Positions 56,672 to 63,997 of a stretch of 64,000 bases of DNA are shown here, piece by piece. The stretch comes from Sphaerochaeta halotolerans. Lineage in GTDB: Bacteria; Spirochaetota; Spirochaetia; Sphaerochaetales; Sphaerochaetaceae. The stretch covers positions 104,990-168,989 of the forward strand of contig NZ_QUWK01000002.1 in assembly GCF_003429665.1 (NCBI RefSeq), given 5' to 3'. The notes beneath the pieces were generated by a model, which saw only the letters and a list, made by a program, of their open reading frames with translations, was not told the DNA's origin and did no database searches. The translations under genes and the position numbers were made by a program. How positions within the stretch are numbered: the stretch's first letter is position 1; each line of letters begins with the position of its first letter.

Positions 56672-56717
56672 CACTTAGCATTCTCCTCTATCGTATTTAT
56701 TTCTACTTTATTTTCAG

Positions 56718-56742
56718 CCTCCGTGTATTCAACGGAGGTTTT
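56718..56742 (+). terminator. Rho-independent terminator after the PAP2 gene
   Basis: CCTCCGT (56718-56724) and ACGGAGG (56732-56738) with a 7-base loop, followed by TTTTG. It lies 47 bp past the PAP2 stop. The rest of the 252-bp gap to the TAXI gene is AT-rich and holds a promoter. Confidence 0.75.
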
Positions 56743-56867
56743 GTCTGTTTCTGTTGTGAAGATTGATAACTTAGTAACTGTAACTATTATATGTCTTTAT
56801 ATGTTACTTATGCTAAGAGTGTTTTTGTGTCACTTAAAGCGTAGAACAATATTGTTATACAAAATTG

Positions 56868-56896
56868 TTGACAACTGGTGTATCACAGTTTACGAT
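56868..56896 (+). promoter_or_regulatory. Promoter of the TRAP-TAXI/dicarboxylate operon
   Basis: A consensus -35 TTGACA (56868-56873) is 17 bases from TACGAT (56891-56896), giving a start near 56903 and a short leader with AAAGGAG. Short inverted repeats TGTAT/ATACA (56879-56883, 56899-56903) flank the -10 and might serve the GntR regulator encoded downstream, but this is weak. Confidence 0.6.
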
Positions 56897-56923: not shown

Positions 56924-57895
56924 ATGAATCTAATGAAAAAGTGTTTGATGATTTCCTTGATTTCAATCATGGCTCTCTCCTTCGTTTTTGCACAGGGAGA
57001 GAATGAAGAAAGTGGTGCTGCAAGGCCCGCTTTTATCTCAATCGGAACTGCCTCTGCAGCAGGAGCCTATTATCCAATCGGTGTTGCCTTGGCTGATGTC
57101 TGGAACAAGACACTGCCGGGTACTCGCTTCAGTTCCCAGGAGACTGGCGGAAGTGTTGCAAACCTTAATATGATCGCCAGTGGAGAATTGGAAATGGGCA
57201 TGTCCAATGAGAACGTTGCCTATACTGCAGGGCTTGGCCAAGATCCCTTCAAGAATCCAATTGATTTGAAAGGTGGTTGGATCCTGAACAACAGTAATGC
57301 AATCATCGTGGCGATGGGAGATTCTGGAATTACCAGTGTTTCACAGTTAAAGGGAAAGAAAGTGTCACTTGGCGCTCCTGGATCCTCAGCCAATGTCTTT
57401 GGTGAGCTCATTCTTGCTTCCGAGGGACTGGAGAAGGGTGACTATGAGCAGGTGTTCATGGGCTGGCAGGAATCAGCAGATGCAATGAATGATGGGTTTA
57501 TTGATGCTGCACTGATGGTTGGTGGTCAACCATTCCCAGCAGTTACCTCTCTGTCGGTCAGATCTGATGTACAGGTACTTACCTTCAATACAAAGCGCTT
57601 CAGGGAATTGAGTAGCTATCCTTATGCTACCGATAAGATTCCTGCAGATATGTATGACATGAAACAGGATGGCGATTCAGTAATCATTCGTTCTGTTGTG
57701 TACATCAGTCCAGATCTTTCTGATGAGATTGTGTATGACATGGTAAAACAGGTATTTGAGAATATCCCAACGCTTGTCTCTGCACACCCCTCCGCTTCTG
57801 GAACCCGTCTGTTCTCTGAAGAGGCTGCAAAGGATATTAGTCTTGAAATCCATCCTGGCGTAATTCGCTATGCAACAGAAGTAGGTGAATGGTAA
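56924..57895 (+). CDS. TRAP transporter TAXI-family solute-binding protein
   Basis: The periplasmic receptor of a TRAP transporter, 323 residues, with a signal peptide MKKCLMISLISIMALSFVFAQG. TAXI-family marks are ISIGTASAAGAYYPIGVALADVWNK, FSSQETGGSVANLNMIASGELEMGM and LKGKKVSLGAPGSSANVFGELIL, ending with IHPGVIRYATEVGEW. It overlaps the permease gene by one base (TAATG) and is followed by enzymes for 2-pyrone-4,6-dicarboxylate breakdown. A di- or tricarboxylate ligand is therefore likely, though not visible in the sequence. Confidence 0.92.
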   Translation: MNLMKKCLMISLISIMALSFVFAQGENEESGAARPAFISIGTASAAGAYYPIGVALADVWNKTLPGTRFSSQETGGSVANLNMIASGELEMGMSNENVAYTAGLGQDPFKNPIDLKGGWILNNSNAIIVAMGDSGITSVSQLKGKKVSLGAPGSSANVFGELILASEGLEKGDYEQVFMGWQESADAMNDGFIDAALMVGGQPFPAVTSLSVRSDVQVLTFNTKRFRELSSYPYATDKIPADMYDMKQDGDSVIIRSVVYISPDLSDEIVYDMVKQVFENIPTLVSAHPSASGTRLFSEEAAKDISLEIHPGVIRYATEVGEW

Positions 57896-59772
57896 TGACA
57901 AGATTTCGTGAAACAATAGCAAAGGTGTCATGGTTGCTGACTTTGGTGTTTATCACCTTTGTTCAGCCACTGTATCTCCTTCCAATAGAGCAACAGCTTC
58001 CAATTACCCTGATGCTCGTCATGATTGGCCTCTTCTATCATAGGCCGTTCATAAAAATGAAGGAGGAAATGGGAAAGCAAGGTTCTATCCCAATGCTGAT
58101 CCTCGACTCATTATTCGTCGTTGCAGCGATTGTGGTAGGTCTCTACATCACGCTCAACTATCATGCCATTATCTATCGCCAGGGAGCATTCACTGCGATG
58201 GATGCAGTAATCTCTGTGGTTGCTGTGGTGCTGGTATTTGATGCAGTGAGAAGAGCTGTAGGTTGGCCACTGACCATTGTGTGTCTTGTTGCGCTTGCCT
58301 ATGCACTTCTTGGAAGGTTGATGCCGGGAGCTCTGTTTCACCGGGGTTATTCAGTAAACAGAATTTCCCTCCAGCTCGCCCTGAGTTATTCCGGAATCTA
58401 CGGAATACCCCTGCAGATCATGGTCCGTTACGTAATTCTCTTCATCGTCTTCGGAGCCTTGTTGCAGGTGAGCGGGGCAGCTGATTTCTTAGTCAGATTT
58501 TCTACATCCTTCGCTGGTAGGTATACCGGAGGACTTGGAAAGGTAGCTGTAGTTGCCAGTGGACTGGTCGGTAGTATCTCTGGAAGTGCTGCTGGCAATG
58601 TTGCTACAACTGGAAGTGTCACTATTCCTGCTATGAAAGGTTCCGGGTATGAACCTCATTTTGCCGCTTCGGTTGAGGCAGTCGCCTCTACCGGGGGGCA
58701 GATCATGCCACCAATCATGGGAGCGGCAGCATTCCTCATGGCAGACTATCTGGGTATTCCCTATATTCAGGTCGTGAAAGCTGCGGTGATTCCTGCTCTC
58801 CTGTATTTCTTCAGCGCAGGTGCGGCGATTGATATCTATGCAAGGTCCAAAGGAATTGTGGGCCTGCCCAAGGACAAGATTCCGCCATTTTGGAATGTGA
58901 TCAAAACAGGATGGGTATTTCTTGCATTGATTCTGCTGGTCTATGGAATGCTTATTGCAGGAGTTTCCCCAACGCTTGCGGCTTTCGCTGGTACCATGGC
59001 AACTGCGTTGTTGATCGTCGTGAGAAGAGTAGGGCTGAAAGCGCTGATTGATGCACTGTATGATGGGGCTCAATCTGCAGCCAAACTGTGTGCAGTGACA
59101 GCAGGAGCAGGTATTGTGGTGGGAATCATCCAGTTGACTGGACTGGGAGCCCAGCTCGCCAGCTTCATGGTTGAAGTGTCACAAGGGCATGTGTTTGTCC
59201 TGCTCATCCTGGTAATGGTTGCATCCATCATCATGGGAATGGGTATGCCTACGACCGTAGTGTATGTGTTGCTGGCTGCCCTCGTAGCCCCAGCACTGGT
59301 TGCACTCGGCATCGATGTGGTTGGAGCACACTTCTTCTTCTTCTATTTTGGTGTACTGGCCGCTATCACACCACCGGTTGCACTTGCTTCCTATGCAGCT
59401 GCCTCCATTGCAAAAAGTGATTTTGACAAGACGGGTTGGACAGCGTTCAAGATGGCCCTTCCGGCTTTCATTGTTCCCTTCTTCTTTGTCATGAACCCGG
59501 CGCTTTTGATGAATGGCTCGGTGCTGGAAATCATTTATGCTGCCTTTACCTCCGCGATAGGGGTATGGATGATCTCGGTTGCAACCATGAACTATTTCAG
59601 AGGAAAACTTCCACTCTGGGCAAGAGCTGTGATCATCCTTGGAGCGATATCGCTCATTGGACATAGCTTGGTAACTGATATTGCCGGGTACTTGGTCCTT
59701 GTAGGTTTGATTTTCTTTGGAATGCGGAGAAAGCAAGTACCCCCAAAGCAGTCTGAGCCTTTGAAAGCGTAA
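57895..59772 (+). CDS. TRAP transporter fused small and large permease (TAXI type)
   Basis: A 625-residue membrane protein combining the 4-helix DctQ-like and 12-helix DctM-like parts, as normal for TAXI systems. Characteristic stretches: FGALLQVSGAADFLVRF, SGSAAGNVATTGSVTIPAMK, FAASVEAVASTGGQIMPPIMGAAAFLMADY, and MGMGMPTTVVYVLLAALVAPALV. The start at 57895 overlaps the receptor's stop and has AGGTGA 6 bases upstream; an ATG two codons earlier is also in frame. It uses an ion gradient for import. It is separated by 79 bp from the first catabolic enzyme. Confidence 0.92.
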   Translation: MTRFRETIAKVSWLLTLVFITFVQPLYLLPIEQQLPITLMLVMIGLFYHRPFIKMKEEMGKQGSIPMLILDSLFVVAAIVVGLYITLNYHAIIYRQGAFTAMDAVISVVAVVLVFDAVRRAVGWPLTIVCLVALAYALLGRLMPGALFHRGYSVNRISLQLALSYSGIYGIPLQIMVRYVILFIVFGALLQVSGAADFLVRFSTSFAGRYTGGLGKVAVVASGLVGSISGSAAGNVATTGSVTIPAMKGSGYEPHFAASVEAVASTGGQIMPPIMGAAAFLMADYLGIPYIQVVKAAVIPALLYFFSAGAAIDIYARSKGIVGLPKDKIPPFWNVIKTGWVFLALILLVYGMLIAGVSPTLAAFAGTMATALLIVVRRVGLKALIDALYDGAQSAAKLCAVTAGAGIVVGIIQLTGLGAQLASFMVEVSQGHVFVLLILVMVASIIMGMGMPTTVVYVLLAALVAPALVALGIDVVGAHFFFFYFGVLAAITPPVALASYAAASIAKSDFDKTGWTAFKMALPAFIVPFFFVMNPALLMNGSVLEIIYAAFTSAIGVWMISVATMNYFRGKLPLWARAVIILGAISLIGHSLVTDIAGYLVLVGLIFFGMRRKQVPPKQSEPLKA

Positions 59773-59851
59773 AGGAAAAAGGAGAAGGAAAAAGAGTTTT
59801 TATTGCAGGACACATGCAAGGAAATTAATTAAAATACAAGGAGAGAGTTTT

Positions 59852-60721
59852 ATGGTCTCACCAGGATATATTCCGTTTCACCCAAATCCAAGCAAACCAG
59901 AATTTACGCTACCGAAAGGTTCCGTTGATTCCCATTGCCATGTCTTTGGCCCAGGCGATGTCTTCCCTTATGCTGCAACGAGCAGCTATGTACCGGTAGA
60001 TGCTCCCAAGGAGTTGCTGTTCCAGAGGCACCAACATCTGGGAATCGATCGCGCTGTCATTGTCCAGGCAAGCTGCCATGGGACAGACAACAGGGCTATG
60101 ATTGATGCCTTGAAGACTGCCGGAGATACCTACCGAGGGATAGCAATTGTCAATTCCGAGATAACTGAGGATGAGCTCAAACAGATGGATGAGGTCGGAG
60201 TGAGAGGGGTCCGTTTCAATTTTGTGAAACGGTTGAAGGCTCGCCAGCCAATCGAAGTACGAATGAATATCCTTGAGAAAATCAAACAGCTGCCTTGGCA
60301 TCTGGTGGTGTACTTCGAACCAGCAGATCTCCCTGAAATCAAGGATTTCCTTATGCAGGTACCTGTTCCTGTGGTAATTGACCATATGGGATGCATTCCC
60401 TCTGACAAGGGAGTGTCGAGCAAAGAGTTCGAGGAGCTTGCAGAGTTGCTACGGGATGACCGGTTTTGGATAAAAGTCAGTTGTCCTGAGCGTTTCAGCA
60501 AACAAGGAGCCCCGTATCTTGATATGGATGAGGTTGCCTCAGAGCTGATCAGAATGATTCCCGATAGGGTTCTGTGGGGAACAGATTGGCCACATCCCAA
60601 CATGAAGAGGGAAGCACCGGATGATGGAATACTTGTAGACAGAATTGCAAGGATTTGTCCTGATGAACAGCAGCAAAAAGCGCTGCTGATCGAAAACCCA
60701 ACCCGCTTGTACTGGGGTTGA
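59852..60721 (+). CDS. ligI: 2-pyrone-4,6-dicarboxylate hydrolase (amidohydrolase family)
   Basis: Opens the lactone ring of 2-pyrone-4,6-dicarboxylate (PDC) to 4-oxalomesaconate. 289 residues. Close agreement with Sphingobium LigI along the chain: GSVDSHCHVFGPGDVFPYA (HxH), RAVIVQASCHGTDNRAMIDAL, GVRGVRFNFVKRLKARQP, VPVPVVIDHMGCIPSDKG and RVLWGTDWPHPNMKREAPDDG with the catalytic Asp. AAGGAGAG precedes the ATG. A related enzyme, 4-sulfomuconolactone hydrolase, is a less likely alternative. The neighbouring hydratase, tautomerase and aldolase support the assignment. Confidence 0.87.
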   Translation: MVSPGYIPFHPNPSKPEFTLPKGSVDSHCHVFGPGDVFPYAATSSYVPVDAPKELLFQRHQHLGIDRAVIVQASCHGTDNRAMIDALKTAGDTYRGIAIVNSEITEDELKQMDEVGVRGVRFNFVKRLKARQPIEVRMNILEKIKQLPWHLVVYFEPADLPEIKDFLMQVPVPVVIDHMGCIPSDKGVSSKEFEELAELLRDDRFWIKVSCPERFSKQGAPYLDMDEVASELIRMIPDRVLWGTDWPHPNMKREAPDDGILVDRIARICPDEQQQKALLIENPTRLYWG

Positions 60722-60747
60722 TGTATTGAATGATTGAGAGGAATAGT

Positions 60748-61482
60748 ATGGGTAACAATAAAAGCGCTCTAGTCATGAGTGCACATGCAGCAGATTTTGT
60801 TTGGAGAGCTGGTGGAGCAATTGCTCTGCACCAGAAGGCAGGCTATGATGTCACTGTTGTCTGTCTCAGTTATGGAGAACGAGGTGAAAGTGCCAAATAT
60901 TGGAAGAAGGGAGATGTGACAATCGAGCAGGTAAAGCGTGAGAGAAGGAAAGAGTCGGAAGCGGCGGCAAAGGCGCTGAATGTCCACGATATCCAATTCT
61001 TTGATCTGGGAGACTATCCCCTTGAAATGGACAGGGAAGCAAAGTATCGACTCGTTGATGTCATTAGAAAAGTACAGCCAGATTTCATAATGAGCCACTC
61101 CTTCTATGATCCGTACAACACGGACCATGCGTACGTTACCAAAGCACTTCTTGAGTGCAGGATGATCGCCCAGGCTTGGGGGCATAATCCAGGCGAGAAA
61201 ATTCTCGGGGCTCCTCAGGTCTATCTGTTCGAACCACACCAGACTGAGCAAATGCAGTGGAAACCAGATGTATTCCTTGATATCACAGAAGTGTGGGATC
61301 AGAAGAGAGCCGCGATTGAGTGTATGCAGGGCCAGGAACATCTTTGGAACTACTACACAAATCTGGCACAAAACAGGGCAAACCATTTTAGACGGAATTC
61401 CGGAGGGCAGGCTGGTGGAAAAGACGCCAAGTATGCTGAAGGGTTCCAATCGGTATTCCCTCGAACAGTGTCCTCTTTGTAG
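60748..61482 (+). CDS. galB: 4-oxalomesaconate hydratase (PIG-L/LmbE family, GalB-like)
   Basis: Hydrates 4-oxalomesaconate to 4-carboxy-4-hydroxy-2-oxoadipate. 244 residues of the PIG-L deacetylase fold. It matches Pseudomonas GalB rather than sugar deacetylases: MSAHAADFVWRAGGAIALH, VVCLSYGERGESAKYWKKG, FDLGDYPLEMD, SHSFYDPYNTDH, GAPQVYLFEPHQTEQ, DITEVWDQKRAAIECMQGQE and YAEGFQSVFPR. The usual AHPDD of deacetylases is AHAAD here, as in GalB. ATG 60748 is preferred to 60730 because GAGAGG is 6 bases upstream. Confidence 0.86.
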   Translation: MGNNKSALVMSAHAADFVWRAGGAIALHQKAGYDVTVVCLSYGERGESAKYWKKGDVTIEQVKRERRKESEAAAKALNVHDIQFFDLGDYPLEMDREAKYRLVDVIRKVQPDFIMSHSFYDPYNTDHAYVTKALLECRMIAQAWGHNPGEKILGAPQVYLFEPHQTEQMQWKPDVFLDITEVWDQKRAAIECMQGQEHLWNYYTNLAQNRANHFRRNSGGQAGGKDAKYAEGFQSVFPRTVSSL

Positions 61483-61536
61483 CATAATAAGGATGTATGA
61501 GTAATAATATTAACCAGTACAATAAACGGAGAGCAT

Positions 61537-62184
61537 ATGAAAGGTAATGGTCCTTCAGCAGCAGTATATGAAAGTCTTAAGAAAAAGATTGAGGTAGGCT
61601 CATTGTCTCCCAGTGAAAATCTCCGGGAAGTGGAACTGGCAAATCAGTACAAGGTAAGTCGAAATACCATCAAGAAGGCACTCTTGATGTTGGAGCGGGA
61701 TACCCTTGTTACCATTGAGCAGAATAAAGGAGCGAAAGTTCGCTCCTATTCGCTTGACGAGGTACTTGATTTCCTGGAGCTAAGGAGTGTGCTTGAAGGA
61801 TTTATCATTCGTCTCTCCTGTGCTGTGTTGAGTGAGACTGATATTGAGAATATGAAACGTATTCTGGATACGATGAGAGTACTGAAAGATCGGCAGGAGC
61901 TGGTTTCCTATTCTCAACACAACCAGAAGTTCCACCAGGTCATCTATGATGCTTGTCCCAATAAGACAGCAACCAATCTGCTCATGAATCTTAAGAACCA
62001 GATGAAAAAGTATAACACCAAAACCATCCTGATTCCCAAGAGATCTGATCAATCGTTTGGTGAACATGAGGCGATTTTTGAAGCAGTGAAAAACGGTGAT
62101 TGTCAGGGAGCTGAGTCACTCATGATTACTCATATCATGAATGTCAGGAAGGTGTTTCAGGAAAACTATCAGCTCCTGTTATAG
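61537..62184 (+). CDS. GntR-family regulator (FCD-type)
   Basis: A 215-residue regulator. The N-terminal winged helix-turn-helix reads VYESLKKKIEVGSLSPSENLREVELANQYKVSRNTIKKALLMLERDTLV. A C-terminal all-helical FCD/FadR-like ligand domain follows (LELRSVLEGFIIRLSCAVLS; HNQKFHQVIYDAC; EHEAIFEAVKNGD; ITHIMNVRKVF) with His residues suited to metal and carboxylate binding. It sits inside the dicarboxylate cluster between the hydratase and tautomerase genes, 54 bp after the former, and probably senses a pathway acid. Confidence 0.88.
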   Translation: MKGNGPSAAVYESLKKKIEVGSLSPSENLREVELANQYKVSRNTIKKALLMLERDTLVTIEQNKGAKVRSYSLDEVLDFLELRSVLEGFIIRLSCAVLSETDIENMKRILDTMRVLKDRQELVSYSQHNQKFHQVIYDACPNKTATNLLMNLKNQMKKYNTKTILIPKRSDQSFGEHEAIFEAVKNGDCQGAESLMITHIMNVRKVFQENYQLLL

Positions 62185-62198
62185 GAAAGGAAACAGTA

Positions 62199-63293
62199 AT
62201 GCAGAAAGCAATTCCCTATATGCAAATCCGGGGAGGGAGTTCAAAGGGACTCTACTTCAACGCCGCAGCTCTTCCTCAGAATACAGAAGAGAAGGACCGA
62301 ATCCTCATCGCAGCCATGTGCGGTCGTGGCCCAACAGATATAAGACAGATTGATGGGTTGGGCGGTGCAGACCCGCTTACAAGCAAGGTAGGTATCGTAT
62401 CCCTCTCAAAACGGGATGATGCAGACCTTGAGTATGAATTTGTACAGGTTGTGCTGGGGGAAGGGAAAACCGACAGAACCCAGAACTGTGGAAACATTCT
62501 AGCAGGGATCGTTCCGTTTGCGTTGGAGACAGGCATGCTTCCTTCCCAGGATCCAATCACAGAATACCGGGTTTTTATGATTAACAGCGAATCGCTTTGC
62601 AAAGTGAGAGTCTCAACACCGAATGGGAAGATTACCTATGCAGGGGATGCTTCAATTGATGGCGTTCCAGGGACTTCAGCCCCGATCAGTTGCCTGTATG
62701 AAGGCATAACCGGAGCAATTTGTGGAGCTTTGCTTCCTACAGGAAACAAGATTGATGTCATTGATGATATTCCTGTTACCTGTCTCGATAACGGAATGCC
62801 GGTAGTGCTTATACGAGCAGAAGACCTTGGCAGGAGCGGGTATGAGTCCCCCAATGAACTTTCTGATGACCTAGAGCTTAAAAAACGGTTAGAGAGCATC
62901 AGACTGAAAGCAGGTCACATGATGAATCTGGGGGATGTGAGCGAGAAAGTGGTTCCCAAGATGACACTCATAGCCCCCCCACGAGCTGGAGGGATTGTCA
63001 CTACAAGAAGTTTCATTCCCCATCGGGTACATGCAGCGGTTGGTGTCCTTGCTGCCGTTACCGTAGCAACAGGGTGTCTTGTACCTGGAACCGTTGCAGA
63101 AACGGTTGCGGTACTGCCAGAAAATTACAAAGGAGATTCATATCTTCTAGAGCACCCTTCGGGGAACATCGCGGTAAGTCTTGAACTTGAAGCAGGGGCA
63201 GATATCCCTGTCGTCAAGAGTGCAGGAGTTATTAGGACTGCCCGTGCACTGAGCCGTGGCGAAATATTACTTCCAGAAGAGGATTATGTATGA
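62199..63293 (+). CDS. galD: 4-oxalomesaconate tautomerase (PrpF family, GalD-like)
   Basis: Interconverts the keto and enol forms of 4-oxalomesaconate. 364 residues of the PrpF/DAP-epimerase fold. Marks: PYMQIRGGSSKGLYFNAAALP, GRGPTDIRQIDGLGGADPLTSKVGIVS, FVQVVLGEGKTDRTQNCGNILAGIVPFAL with the conserved Cys, and APPRAGGIVTTRSFIPHRVHAAVGVLAAVTVATGCLVPGTV. The motif order matches GalD rather than methylaconitate isomerase PrpF, though the two are related. It overlaps the aldolase gene by 4 bp, confirming a shared pathway. Confidence 0.85.
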   Translation: MQKAIPYMQIRGGSSKGLYFNAAALPQNTEEKDRILIAAMCGRGPTDIRQIDGLGGADPLTSKVGIVSLSKRDDADLEYEFVQVVLGEGKTDRTQNCGNILAGIVPFALETGMLPSQDPITEYRVFMINSESLCKVRVSTPNGKITYAGDASIDGVPGTSAPISCLYEGITGAICGALLPTGNKIDVIDDIPVTCLDNGMPVVLIRAEDLGRSGYESPNELSDDLELKKRLESIRLKAGHMMNLGDVSEKVVPKMTLIAPPRAGGIVTTRSFIPHRVHAAVGVLAAVTVATGCLVPGTVAETVAVLPENYKGDSYLLEHPSGNIAVSLELEAGADIPVVKSAGVIRTARALSRGEILLPEEDYV

Positions 63294-63997
63294 AAACAGT
63301 AGCAGTAAAAAATATTGAACGCGCAAATAGTGAAACGATAGATGCCCTCGGTAAACTTGGTGTTGCCACAGTGCATGAAGCCCAGGGAAGAATAGGGTAT
63401 CTGAAACCCTATATCAGGCCAGTCTATCCTCATGCGCAGATTGCAGGTAGTGCAGTCACGGTCTTGTTGCAGCCAGGAGATAACTGGATGATTCATGTGG
63501 CAATGGAACTTTGCCAACCAGGTGATGTGCTTATTGCTGCCTGCACTGCTGACTGTGACAGTGGATTCTTTGGGGATCTCCTAGCTGAGTCGGCAATGGC
63601 ACGGGGTGTGAGAGGTCTTGTCATAGAAGGTGGGGTGCGAGACACTGCATCCTTCCAGGATATGGGATTCCCTGTATGGTCCAAAGCCGTAAGTGCGCAA
63701 GGTACGGTGAAGGAGACCCTCGGTGCTGTCAATATTCCTATTGTATGTGCAGGGCAAGTGGTAAACCCGGGCGACGTTGTGGTGGCTGACGATGATGGTG
63801 TGGTCATTGTAGATCGTCAGGATGCTGAAAAAGTGCTCAAGAAAGGCTTGGAGCGTGAGAGGAAGGAAGCAGAGAAGCGAGCAATGTTTGCTGAAGGCAC
63901 ACTCGGTCTTGATATCTACAACATGCGTCCCCGTTTGCAGGAGAAGGGCCTGGTATATCTGGATAACCTGGAGGAGTATTTTCAGTTCAAAGGATAG
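63290..63997 (+). CDS. galC: 4-carboxy-4-hydroxy-2-oxoadipate (CHA) aldolase, LigK/GalC type
   Basis: Splits 4-carboxy-4-hydroxy-2-oxoadipate into pyruvate and oxaloacetate. 235 residues, RraA-like fold. Class II pyruvate aldolase marks: LGVATVHEAQGRIGYLKPYIRPVYP, GDNWMIHVAMELCQPGDVLI, GFFGDLLAESAMARGVRGLVIEGGVRDT with the catalytic Arg-Asp, and VNPGDVVVADDDGVVIVDR. The Gly-Asp-Leu-Leu then Arg-Asp spacing is the signature of active aldolases, whereas RraA regulators differ. It starts by ATGA overlap with the tautomerase gene and is the last gene visible. Confidence 0.9.
   Translation: MKTVAVKNIERANSETIDALGKLGVATVHEAQGRIGYLKPYIRPVYPHAQIAGSAVTVLLQPGDNWMIHVAMELCQPGDVLIAACTADCDSGFFGDLLAESAMARGVRGLVIEGGVRDTASFQDMGFPVWSKAVSAQGTVKETLGAVNIPIVCAGQVVNPGDVVVADDDGVVIVDRQDAEKVLKKGLERERKEAEKRAMFAEGTLGLDIYNMRPRLQEKGLVYLDNLEEYFQFKG

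What the first reader, a model, noticed from the sequence alone, without database searches (positions are those of the whole stretch)
56924..63997. A PDC/4-oxalomesaconate degradation operon with its own TRAP-TAXI importer and no ring-cleaving oxygenase
The sequence encodes a TAXI receptor, a fused TRAP permease, PDC hydrolase (LigI), 4-oxalomesaconate hydratase (GalB), a GntR regulator, a tautomerase (GalD) and a CHA aldolase (LigK/GalC). From family knowledge these enzymes carry PDC to pyruvate plus oxaloacetate. In known bacteria they follow oxygen-dependent cleavage of protocatechuate or gallate. Nothing in the window supplies that step, and the inferred host group is anaerobic. Inference: the cell scavenges PDC or a related tricarboxylate released by aerobic lignin degraders, or makes it by an unknown anaerobic route, and ferments it. 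A TAXI receptor for PDC would be a new specificity.
Basis: partly seen in the sequence, partly recalled or inferred. Interest (0 to 1): 0.82.

Follow-up and report, generated by a model that had tools for sequence, protein, structure and literature searches.

The report
Oxygen-free PDC import-and-breakdown operon
A bacterium of the anaerobic genus Sphaerochaeta carries a conserved seven-gene cluster that likely imports 2-pyrone-4,6-dicarboxylate (PDC, an acid reported from rose-family plants) and is predicted to split it into pyruvate and oxaloacetate, in a genome where the oxygen-using LigAB enzyme that normally leads to PDC was not found, so that PDC would be food for cells living without oxygen.

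Summary
Seven co-directional genes (56924-63997) encode a TAXI receptor, a fused TRAP permease, LigI, GalB, a GntR/FCD regulator, GalD and LigK. GalD and LigK exceed curated NCBIfam cut-offs; all four enzymes match solved enzymes of the PDC/oxalomesaconate pathway (E 1e-80 to 1e-109). The next gene beyond 63997 is convergent. LigA, COX1 and cytochrome bd have no hit in the whole genome; its one LigB-fold gene is DODA-like and common in the genus. The operon is in 7 of 26 same-genus genomes, after the same upstream gene; two of four operon-free genomes read show the empty site. All seven genes are under purifying selection (dN/dS 0.015-0.082).

Of 81 ligI genomes, LigA is missing from 9 of 11 with adjacent TAXI-TRAP and from 2 of 70 without. 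LigI kept without LigAB points to PDC as the imported substrate. (2) PDC need not come from aerobic lignin degraders: it is reported at 0.1-2% in eleven Rosoideae genera. Ligand and enzyme activities are inferred, not measured.

The parts
56716..56740 (+). intrinsic-terminator-like hairpin with T-rich tail, after the upstream (PAP2-phosphatase-like, by eye) gene
   Evidence: Terminator scan: 1 found against 0.1 expected; hairpin recognisable by eye in the 7 aligned operon-bearing genomes, with changes in G512
56844..56857 (.). predicted regulator (GntR) operator, palindrome GAACAATATTGTTA; the other six genomes read GAACAAAATTGTTC
   Evidence: Block nearly invariant across 7 aligned genomes. 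The 12-base core occurs at 2 places in the genome, 0 for the reversed control. In the window alone 2 matches with up to 2 mismatches is no more than chance (mean 1.74), so the case rests on conservation and place. Binding by this GntR is inferred
56859..56870 (.). second, adjacent part of the predicted operator (ACAAAATTGTTG), overlapping the -35 hexamer
   Evidence: Same 12 bases in 5 of 7 genomes, one base different in G508 and G509
56868..56896 (+). predicted sigma-70-type promoter TTGACA-17-TACGAT
   Evidence: Promoter scan, 10 of 12 matches; 3 sites found against 1.3 expected in the region, so weak alone; both hexamers the same in the 7-genome alignment
56924..57895 (+). TAXI-family TRAP solute receptor (predicted PDC receptor)
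57889..59772 (+). fused TRAP permease
   Evidence: TIGR02123 603.9 bits; overlaps the TAXI gene; dN/dS 0.022-0.028
59852..60721 (+). LigI, 2-pyrone-4,6-dicarboxylate hydrolase
   Evidence: 274.5 bits to PDC hydrolase 4d8l; the aspartate mutated in 4dia/4di8 is kept as D245; dN/dS 0.027-0.032
60730..61482 (+). GalB, PIG-L-type 4-oxalomesaconate hydratase
   Evidence: 320.3 bits to 5cgz, next hit 53.6 bits
61537..62184 (+). GntR-family regulator with FCD domain
   Evidence: Pfam GntR 58.5 bits and FCD 95.2 bits
62199..63293 (+). GalD, 4-oxalomesaconate tautomerase
   Evidence: NF033377 469.9 bits, cut-off 440; 367.9 bits to 6p3j
63290..63997 (+). LigK/GalC, 4-carboxy-4-hydroxy-2-oxoadipate aldolase / oxaloacetate decarboxylase
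   Evidence: TIGR02798 350.2 bits, cut-off 304.5; 306.1 bits to 3noj

Best explanation
These seven genes form a likely operon that is predicted to take up PDC from outside the cell and convert it, without oxygen, to pyruvate and oxaloacetate, which the cell would ferment. Predicted steps: the TAXI receptor binds PDC and the fused TRAP permease carries it in on an ion gradient. LigI opens the lactone to 4-oxalomesaconate, GalD makes the enol tautomer, GalB hydrates it to 4-carboxy-4-hydroxy-2-oxoadipate, and LigK splits that to pyruvate and oxaloacetate. The sum is C7H4O6 + 2 H2O -> C3H4O3 + C4H4O5 (my arithmetic), with no oxidation, oxygen or ATP needed. The GntR/FCD protein is predicted to repress the operon from palindromes over the -35 box until the substrate arrives. 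Shown here: gene content, order, conservation, site of insertion, and no hit for LigA, COX1 and bd oxidase. Inferred: one transcript, substrate, activities, regulation, and that plant-derived PDC is the natural source.
For: Enzyme identities. No LigA hit in the genome; its only LigB-fold gene is DODA-like (140 bits to PRK10628, cut-off 233) and common in the genus, in 7 of 7 operon carriers and 13 of 19 genomes without ligI, so it is probably not part of the system. No COX1 in 7 of 7 carriers, no bd oxidase in 11 of 11. All 7 genes under purifying selection, dN/dS 0.015-0.082 in 4 comparisons. TAXI-TRAP beside ligI goes with loss of LigA: absent in 9 of 11 genomes with, 2 of 70 without (Fisher p 1e-8; Sphaerochaeta counted once 4e-7; loci with at least 4.5 kb on both sides 7 of 9 vs 0 of 42). 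Unlike TAXI receptors (4 measured, 21-26% identity to this one) stand beside ligI elsewhere. TAXI and LigI homologues sit on contigs of the same length in 8 cases (120 LigI by 78 TAXI rows; jittered control mean 0.42) and diverge together (r 0.82, 0 of 5000 permutations); five of those lengths recur among 120 GalD rows. TAXI-TRAPs are reported to carry o-phthalate and 2-oxoglutarate (PMC11574862, passages). PDC is reported at 0.1-2% in eleven Rosoideae genera (PMC9415522, passages).
Against: No binding, growth or enzyme data. Two genomes with adjacent TAXI-TRAP (L064, L068) keep LigA, and two without it (L032, L041) lack LigA, so the replacement is not strict; L070, with a TAXI-TRAP about 8 kb from ligI, keeps LigA and was counted as without (p 4e-8 if counted as with). 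The 11 TAXI-TRAP genomes are not independent. Contigs were matched by length, not read. Synonymous divergence of TAXI, TRAP, GalB and GntR (dS 0.23-0.51) is lower than that of LigI, GalD, LigK and the downstream neighbours (0.52-1.04); I read this as codon bias, but later exchange between strains is possible. The habitat of this strain, and whether it meets PDC, is unknown.
Confidence: 0.72

Rival explanations
1. The importer brings in an open-chain relative (4-oxalomesaconate, 4-carboxy-2-hydroxymuconate or CHA), and PDC is only a side substrate.
For: GalD, GalB and LigK alone would suffice for these acids; the TAXI ligand is untested and its pocket is shared with receptors not seen linked to LigI.
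Against: LigI is kept in all 7 carriers found and is under strong constraint (dN/dS 0.027-0.032), and it would be idle on these substrates. TAXI and LigI co-diverge. PDC is the compound reported in plants.
Confidence: 0.12
2. The DODA-like LigB-fold gene or another oxygenase makes the ring-cleavage product inside the cell under traces of oxygen, so the operon is the lower half of an ordinary protocatechuate or gallate pathway with a distant upper half.
For: One PF02900 gene exists in the genome, and in all 7 carriers.
Against: It is DODA-like, below even the DODA cut-off, present in 13 of 19 genus members without ligI, and about 197 kb from the operon in the single-contig genome G509. LigA has no hit, and no ligC-like gene lies in the operon. 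Carriers lack COX1 and bd oxidase.
Confidence: 0.06
3. The operon is a recent or decaying horizontal import of little use to the host.
For: Patchy: 7 of 26 genomes of the genus, 0 of 113 others of the family. Nearest ligI outside the genus among named records is alphaproteobacterial, 66%; nearer ones of unknown organism reach 86%. The empty site is seen in G494 and G325. dS of TAXI, TRAP, GalB and GntR is lower than that of the downstream neighbours.
Against: All genes intact in the own genome, same order after the same upstream gene in 7 genomes, dN/dS 0.015-0.082, synonymous divergence of LigI, GalD and LigK close to that of neighbouring genes, conserved promoter block.
Confidence: 0.03
4. 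The operon degrades a different lactone or unsaturated tricarboxylate (for example a tannin-derived acid) with LigI-like, GalB-like and GalD-like enzymes of shifted specificity.
For: LigI of this lineage sits in a clade separated from the larger clade of the other loci by a long, fully supported branch. NCBIfam's nearest named hydrolase is another lactonase.
Against: GalD and LigK exceed equivalog cut-offs for the OMA/CHA steps, GalB's next hit after the OMA hydratase is 267 bits weaker, and the same LigI clade includes loci whose genomes have LigA, for example L033 and L037.
Confidence: 0.07

Closest known systems
Protocatechuate 4,5-cleavage pathway, lower half (LigI, LigU/GalD, LigJ or GalB, LigK; Sphingobium SYK-6, Comamonas pmd genes; recalled)
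   Same: The same four chemical steps from PDC to pyruvate and oxaloacetate, by homologous enzymes
   Different: No LigAB or LigC in the operon and no LigA hit in the genome; preceded by a TAXI-TRAP importer; hydratase is the PIG-L type; host lacks COX1 and bd oxidase
Gallate degradation gal cluster of Pseudomonas putida (GalA, GalB, GalC, GalD; recalled)
   Same: GalB, GalC/LigK and GalD homologues
   Different: Has LigI, which the gallate dioxygenase route does not need (recalled); no gallate dioxygenase beside it, and the genome's one PF02900 gene is DODA-like
TAXI-TRAP transporters (VcGluP, o-phthalate system of Azoarcus, opaLN of Pseudomonas PTH10)
   Same: TAXI receptor plus single fused permease; o-phthalate is likewise a ring dicarboxylate (passages of PMC11574862 and PMC6362003)
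   Different: Pocket residues that hold glutamate's amino group in VcGluP (Q93, E125) are N95 and S124 here; linked to PDC hydrolase; ligand untested
TAXI-TRAP/ligI clusters in Alphaproteobacteria (Cohaesibacter celericrescens L050, Roseibium aestuarii L077, Thalassospira povalilytica L051, Afifella L052)
   Same: ligI, galB, ligK and galD beside a TAXI-TRAP, no LigA hit in the genome
   Different: Unlike TAXI receptor (L050 26% identity; the others of these four not measured in that call) and gene order; COX1 present

Membership tests
PDC hydrolase LigI (amidohydrolase superfamily) | Sequence match to characterised LigI over full length | tested here: met
   274.5 bits, residues 8-288, to 4d8l; next different protein 110.4 bits
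PDC hydrolase LigI (amidohydrolase superfamily) | Metal/catalytic residues HxH, His in DHMG, Asp in GTDWPHPN (recalled; the Asp is the one mutated in 4dia/4di8) | tested here: met
   H28, H30, DHMG from 177, D245 present
PDC hydrolase LigI (amidohydrolase superfamily) | Hydrolysis of PDC | not testable with these tools
   needs purified enzyme
4-oxalomesaconate tautomerase GalD/LigU | NCBIfam equivalog cut-off | tested here: met
   469.9 vs 440 bits
4-oxalomesaconate tautomerase GalD/LigU | Lys mutated in 6p3h and Cys in QNCGN (roles recalled) | tested here: met
   Lys in LTSK and Cys in QNCGN kept
4-oxalomesaconate hydratase GalB (PIG-L type) | Match to 5cgz and N-terminal SAH..D and C-side DH motif (roles recalled) | tested here: met
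   320.3 bits; motifs present at 17 and 128
CHA aldolase LigK | NCBIfam equivalog cut-off; GVRD motif (role recalled) | tested here: met
   350.2 vs 304.5 bits; GGVRD at 114
TAXI-type TRAP transporter | TAXI receptor plus single fused permease | tested here: met
TAXI-type TRAP transporter, glutamate-specific (VcGluP) | Pocket Q93 and E125 for the amino group | tested here: not met
   N95 and S124 by the phmmer alignment
Protocatechuate 4,5-cleavage pathway, complete | LigAB ring-cleaving dioxygenase | tested here: not met
   PF07746 0 hits in the genome; the only PF02900 gene is DODA-like
Anaerobic fermentative host | No terminal oxidase (COX1 or bd); genus described as anaerobic, fermentative | tested here: met
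   PF00115 0 of 7 carriers, PF01654 0 of 11 including the 7 carriers; PMC6284720 passages

The most novel reading that the evidence does not exclude
PDC is a plant nutrient with its own microbial guild: bacteria without LigAB, anaerobic Sphaerochaeta among them, eat ready-made PDC from rose-family leaves and decaying plants through dedicated TAXI-TRAP importers recruited at least three times, and anaerobes ferment it with no oxygen or redox step before pyruvate.
Probability: 0.5. Interest if true: 0.8.

Novelty: new variant of a known kind. Interest (0 to 1): 0.66.

Why it matters
The PDC/oxalomesaconate enzymes are known as the tail of oxygen-dependent ring cleavage. Here the tail is coupled to an importer and stands alone in an anaerobe, so a compound thought of as an aerobic lignin intermediate would be an anaerobic food. 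It gives PDC, reported as abundant in rose-family plants, a candidate anaerobic consumer; my searches turned up none by name. It also offers a testable new ligand for TAXI receptors and possible parts (importer, predicted PDC-responsive repressor and operator) for the PDC bioplastics field.

Tried and rejected
Rejected: a dioxygenase just beyond the window (next gene convergent). Rejected: the genome's LigB-family gene as the missing step (DODA-like, common in the genus). Rejected: operon as assembly artefact or contamination (same order after the same upstream gene in 7 genomes, two of them single contigs). Rejected: 4-sulfomuconolactone hydrolase for LigI (215.9 vs cut-off 500 bits).

Led nowhere: looking for near relatives outside the genus by class (6 of 394, all same genus) and by OMA tautomerase in the phylum (17 of 392 at E <= 0.001, only this genome over cut-off); the seven fetched neighbourhoods L022-L028 held PrpF-like genes without a LigI match. 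The organisms behind the more distant TAXI-LigI contigs could not be found out. Foldseek and VIA-align rows gave the TAXI fold but no clue to the ligand. Paper searches: pyrone-4 with PDC uptake/transporter/import phrases, 0 papers; pyrone-4, TAXI, TRAP transporter, 42 papers held at least two, 20 seen as a listing, none of those titles about a PDC-linked TAXI-TRAP; PDC, TRAP transporter, LigI, protocatechuate, 15 listed, of which the one holding all four (PMC13406360) was checked by passages and links TRAP transporters to other aromatic acids, not to PDC; Sphaerochaeta with gallate (8 listed) and Sphaerochaeta/protocatechuate/tannin (7 listed), none on this by title; one search was too broad to be useful. 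So 'not described' covers only these searches of an open-licence library.

Weak points of the LigA count: the 80 loci are the best 80 of 562 relatives, near the query; 29 of 80 had less than 4.5 kb on at least one side; two genomes counted as LigA-positive have only weak hits (G694, G716), and counting them as absent gives p 1.4e-7. The gene caller for neighbourhoods was crude, and cluster names LigA, LigB, LigC, LigJ for other loci are by eye. Names of flanking genes (PAP2, RecX, trpB, glycerate kinase and so on) are by eye.


Full report
WHAT IS THERE. Seven intact, co-directional genes fill 56924-63997: TAXI receptor, fused TRAP permease, LigI, GalB, GntR/FCD regulator, GalD, LigK. Overlaps (TAXI/TRAP, GalD/LigK) and gaps of 8 to 79 bases suggest one transcription unit. 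A terminator-like hairpin at 56716-56740 follows the upstream gene. The next gene after LigK, trpB-like by eye, is on the other strand, so no dioxygenase follows.

ENZYME IDENTITY. NCBIfam places GalD (469.9 bits, cut-off 440) and LigK (350.2, cut-off 304.5) over equivalog cut-offs, and the transporter over the TRAP_TAXI and TRAP_fused cut-offs. LigI and GalB pass no curated cut-off there, but against solved structures LigI scores 274.5 bits to PDC hydrolase, the next different protein 110.4, and GalB 320.3 bits to 4-oxalomesaconate hydratase, the next 53.6. GalD and LigK match 6p3j and 3noj. Residues that I recall as catalytic are kept.

NO RING-CLEAVING STEP. LigA (PF07746) has no hit in the whole genome. 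PF02900 (LigB fold) has one, a DODA-like gene below even that family's cut-off. In the genus it occurs in 7 of 7 genomes with the operon and 13 of 19 without, so it is unlikely to belong to the operon. COX1 is missing in 7 of 7 carriers and cytochrome bd in 11 of 11 genus members tested, 7 of them carriers. The genus is described as anaerobic and fermentative (PMC6284720, passages read).

DISTRIBUTION AND HISTORY. By LigI protein search (E <= 1e-40) the operon is in 7 of 26 same-genus genomes and in none of 113 other family members, and in 6 of 394 class genomes, all same genus. Contig lengths tie two carriers to Sphaerochaeta sp. S2 and Sphaerochaetaceae bacterium bin_16. In all 7 carriers it follows a PAP2-phosphatase-like gene; the trpB-like gene follows in 6, and the contig of the seventh (G506) ends inside ligK. 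Of four operon-free genomes read, G325 and G494 have these two genes next to each other (62 and 657 bases apart), G386 has the trpB-like gene without a detected PAP2-like gene, and G357 did not show the trpB-like gene in the stretch read. dN/dS is 0.015-0.082 for the seven genes in four comparisons; the flanking trpB- and glycerate-kinase-like genes give 0.022-0.040, ribosomal genes 0.057-0.100, RecX- and PAP2-like 0.112-0.183. dS of LigI, GalD and LigK (0.52-1.04) is like that of the downstream neighbours (0.62-0.92); TAXI, TRAP, GalB and GntR are lower (0.23-0.51), which may be codon bias or later exchange between strains. The operon is selected, and most of its genes are not a very recent arrival.

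REGULATION (predicted). The upstream alignment of 7 genomes shows a nearly invariant block with a palindrome, GAACAAAATTGTTC in six and GAACAATATTGTTA here, followed by ACAAAATTGTTG (one base different in two genomes), which runs into the -35 hexamer TTGACA. The 12-base core AACAAWATTGTT is found at two places in the genome, here and on contig C43. Within the window the looser pattern is no rarer than chance; conservation and position carry the argument.

THE WIDER PATTERN. A genome scan with LigI returned 80 loci, the best of 562 relatives: two Sphaerochaeta, the rest Pseudomonadota or bacteria without a group name. In eight of the latter a TAXI receptor and fused TRAP permease lie within about 7 kb of ligI. 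L050 and L077 read galB-ligK-galD-TAXI-TRAP-ligI, and L051 galB-ligK-galD-TRAP-TAXI-ligI. In L031 and L034 only TRAP-TAXI-ligI are together, but both genomes have ligK elsewhere. LigA was sought in the whole genome behind every locus plus the own genome, 81 in all. It is absent in 9 of 11 with adjacent TAXI-TRAP (own, L029, L030, L031, L034, L050, L051, L052, L077; present in L064, L068) and in 2 of 70 without (L032, L041). Fisher p is 1e-8; 4e-7 with Sphaerochaeta counted once; 3e-6 with Proteobacteria alone; and 7 of 9 against 0 of 42 for loci with at least 4.5 kb on both sides. L070, with a TAXI-TRAP about 8 kb from ligI and LigA present, was counted as without; moving it gives 9 of 12 against 2 of 69, p 4e-8. 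The six LigA-less alphaproteobacterial genomes have at most DODA-strength LigB hits (93-119 bits, none in L050's genome), against 224-280 bits for the strong LigB hits in three LigA-bearing ones; all six have COX1. Four TAXI receptors from these clusters share only 21-26% identity with the Sphaerochaeta one, and the eight fall into three further similarity clusters, one of them (L068) seen only in a LigA-bearing genome, so unlike receptors have joined the same enzymes.

SOURCE OF PDC. PMC9415522 (passages) reports PDC at 1-1.7% of dry matter in strawberry leaves and cites 0.1-2% in eleven Rosoideae genera, calling it a chemotaxonomic marker; its origin in strawberry leaves is said to be unsettled. 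PMC8622385 (passages) lists it in leaves, flowers and roots of a wild rose. In PMC11794788 (passages) two peaks tentatively assigned to PDC isomers are listed for the Alchemilla extract and for none of three 24-h anaerobic faecal incubations. That is qualitative, the passages do not show the cell-free control for these peaks, and the microbes are unknown, but it fits anaerobic use of PDC.

VERDICT. A real, conserved, selected gene cluster that most likely imports and degrades PDC without oxygen; a new variant (importer-fed, dioxygenase-free, anaerobic) of a known pathway, and one case of a wider TAXI-TRAP/ligI association. Nothing biochemical has been shown.

Noticed in passing
L003:4876-5811 (genome contig C38): A DODA-like LigB-fold gene is carried by 20 of 26 genomes of this anaerobic genus, an oxygen-type enzyme fold of unknown use there.
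   Followed up: partly
G000:C43:200719-200730: The only other exact genomic copy of the predicted operator core AACAAWATTGTT; a possible second target of the regulator. Its surroundings were not read.
   Followed up: no
L025:7134-11475 and L026:7283-11587: In two other genomes of the class, one of the same genus, a PrpF-like gene (33% to GalD) lies near an RraA-like stretch (34% to LigK) without a LigI match: perhaps a different acid-degradation cluster.
   Followed up: no
L051:10001-10858 and L050:10001-10867: LigI of two LigA-less TAXI-TRAP Alphaproteobacteria sits on long branches (0.87 and 0.67) in the LigI tree, as if evolving faster without LigAB.
   Followed up: no
L002:15476-17081: By eye, a nucleotidyltransferase-like and an AbiEi-like gene pair (toxin-antitoxin or abortive-infection type) about 6.5 kb downstream of the operon; no match in the stretches read of the other operon-bearing genomes, some of which end near there.
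   Followed up: no
window 56924-57895: The TAXI subfamily keeps nearly the same predicted pocket residues from about 46 to 100% identity, including a protein named from Limnochorda pilosa and a Firmicutes MAG; its ligand class may be wider than PDC.
   Followed up: partly
L040, L046, L047, L053, L054, L058, L059, L061, L067, L071, L079, L089, L096: Several LigA-bearing ligI loci carry a DctP-type (not TAXI) receptor, often with a DctM-like permease, within 10 kb of ligI; what they import was not studied.
   Followed up: no
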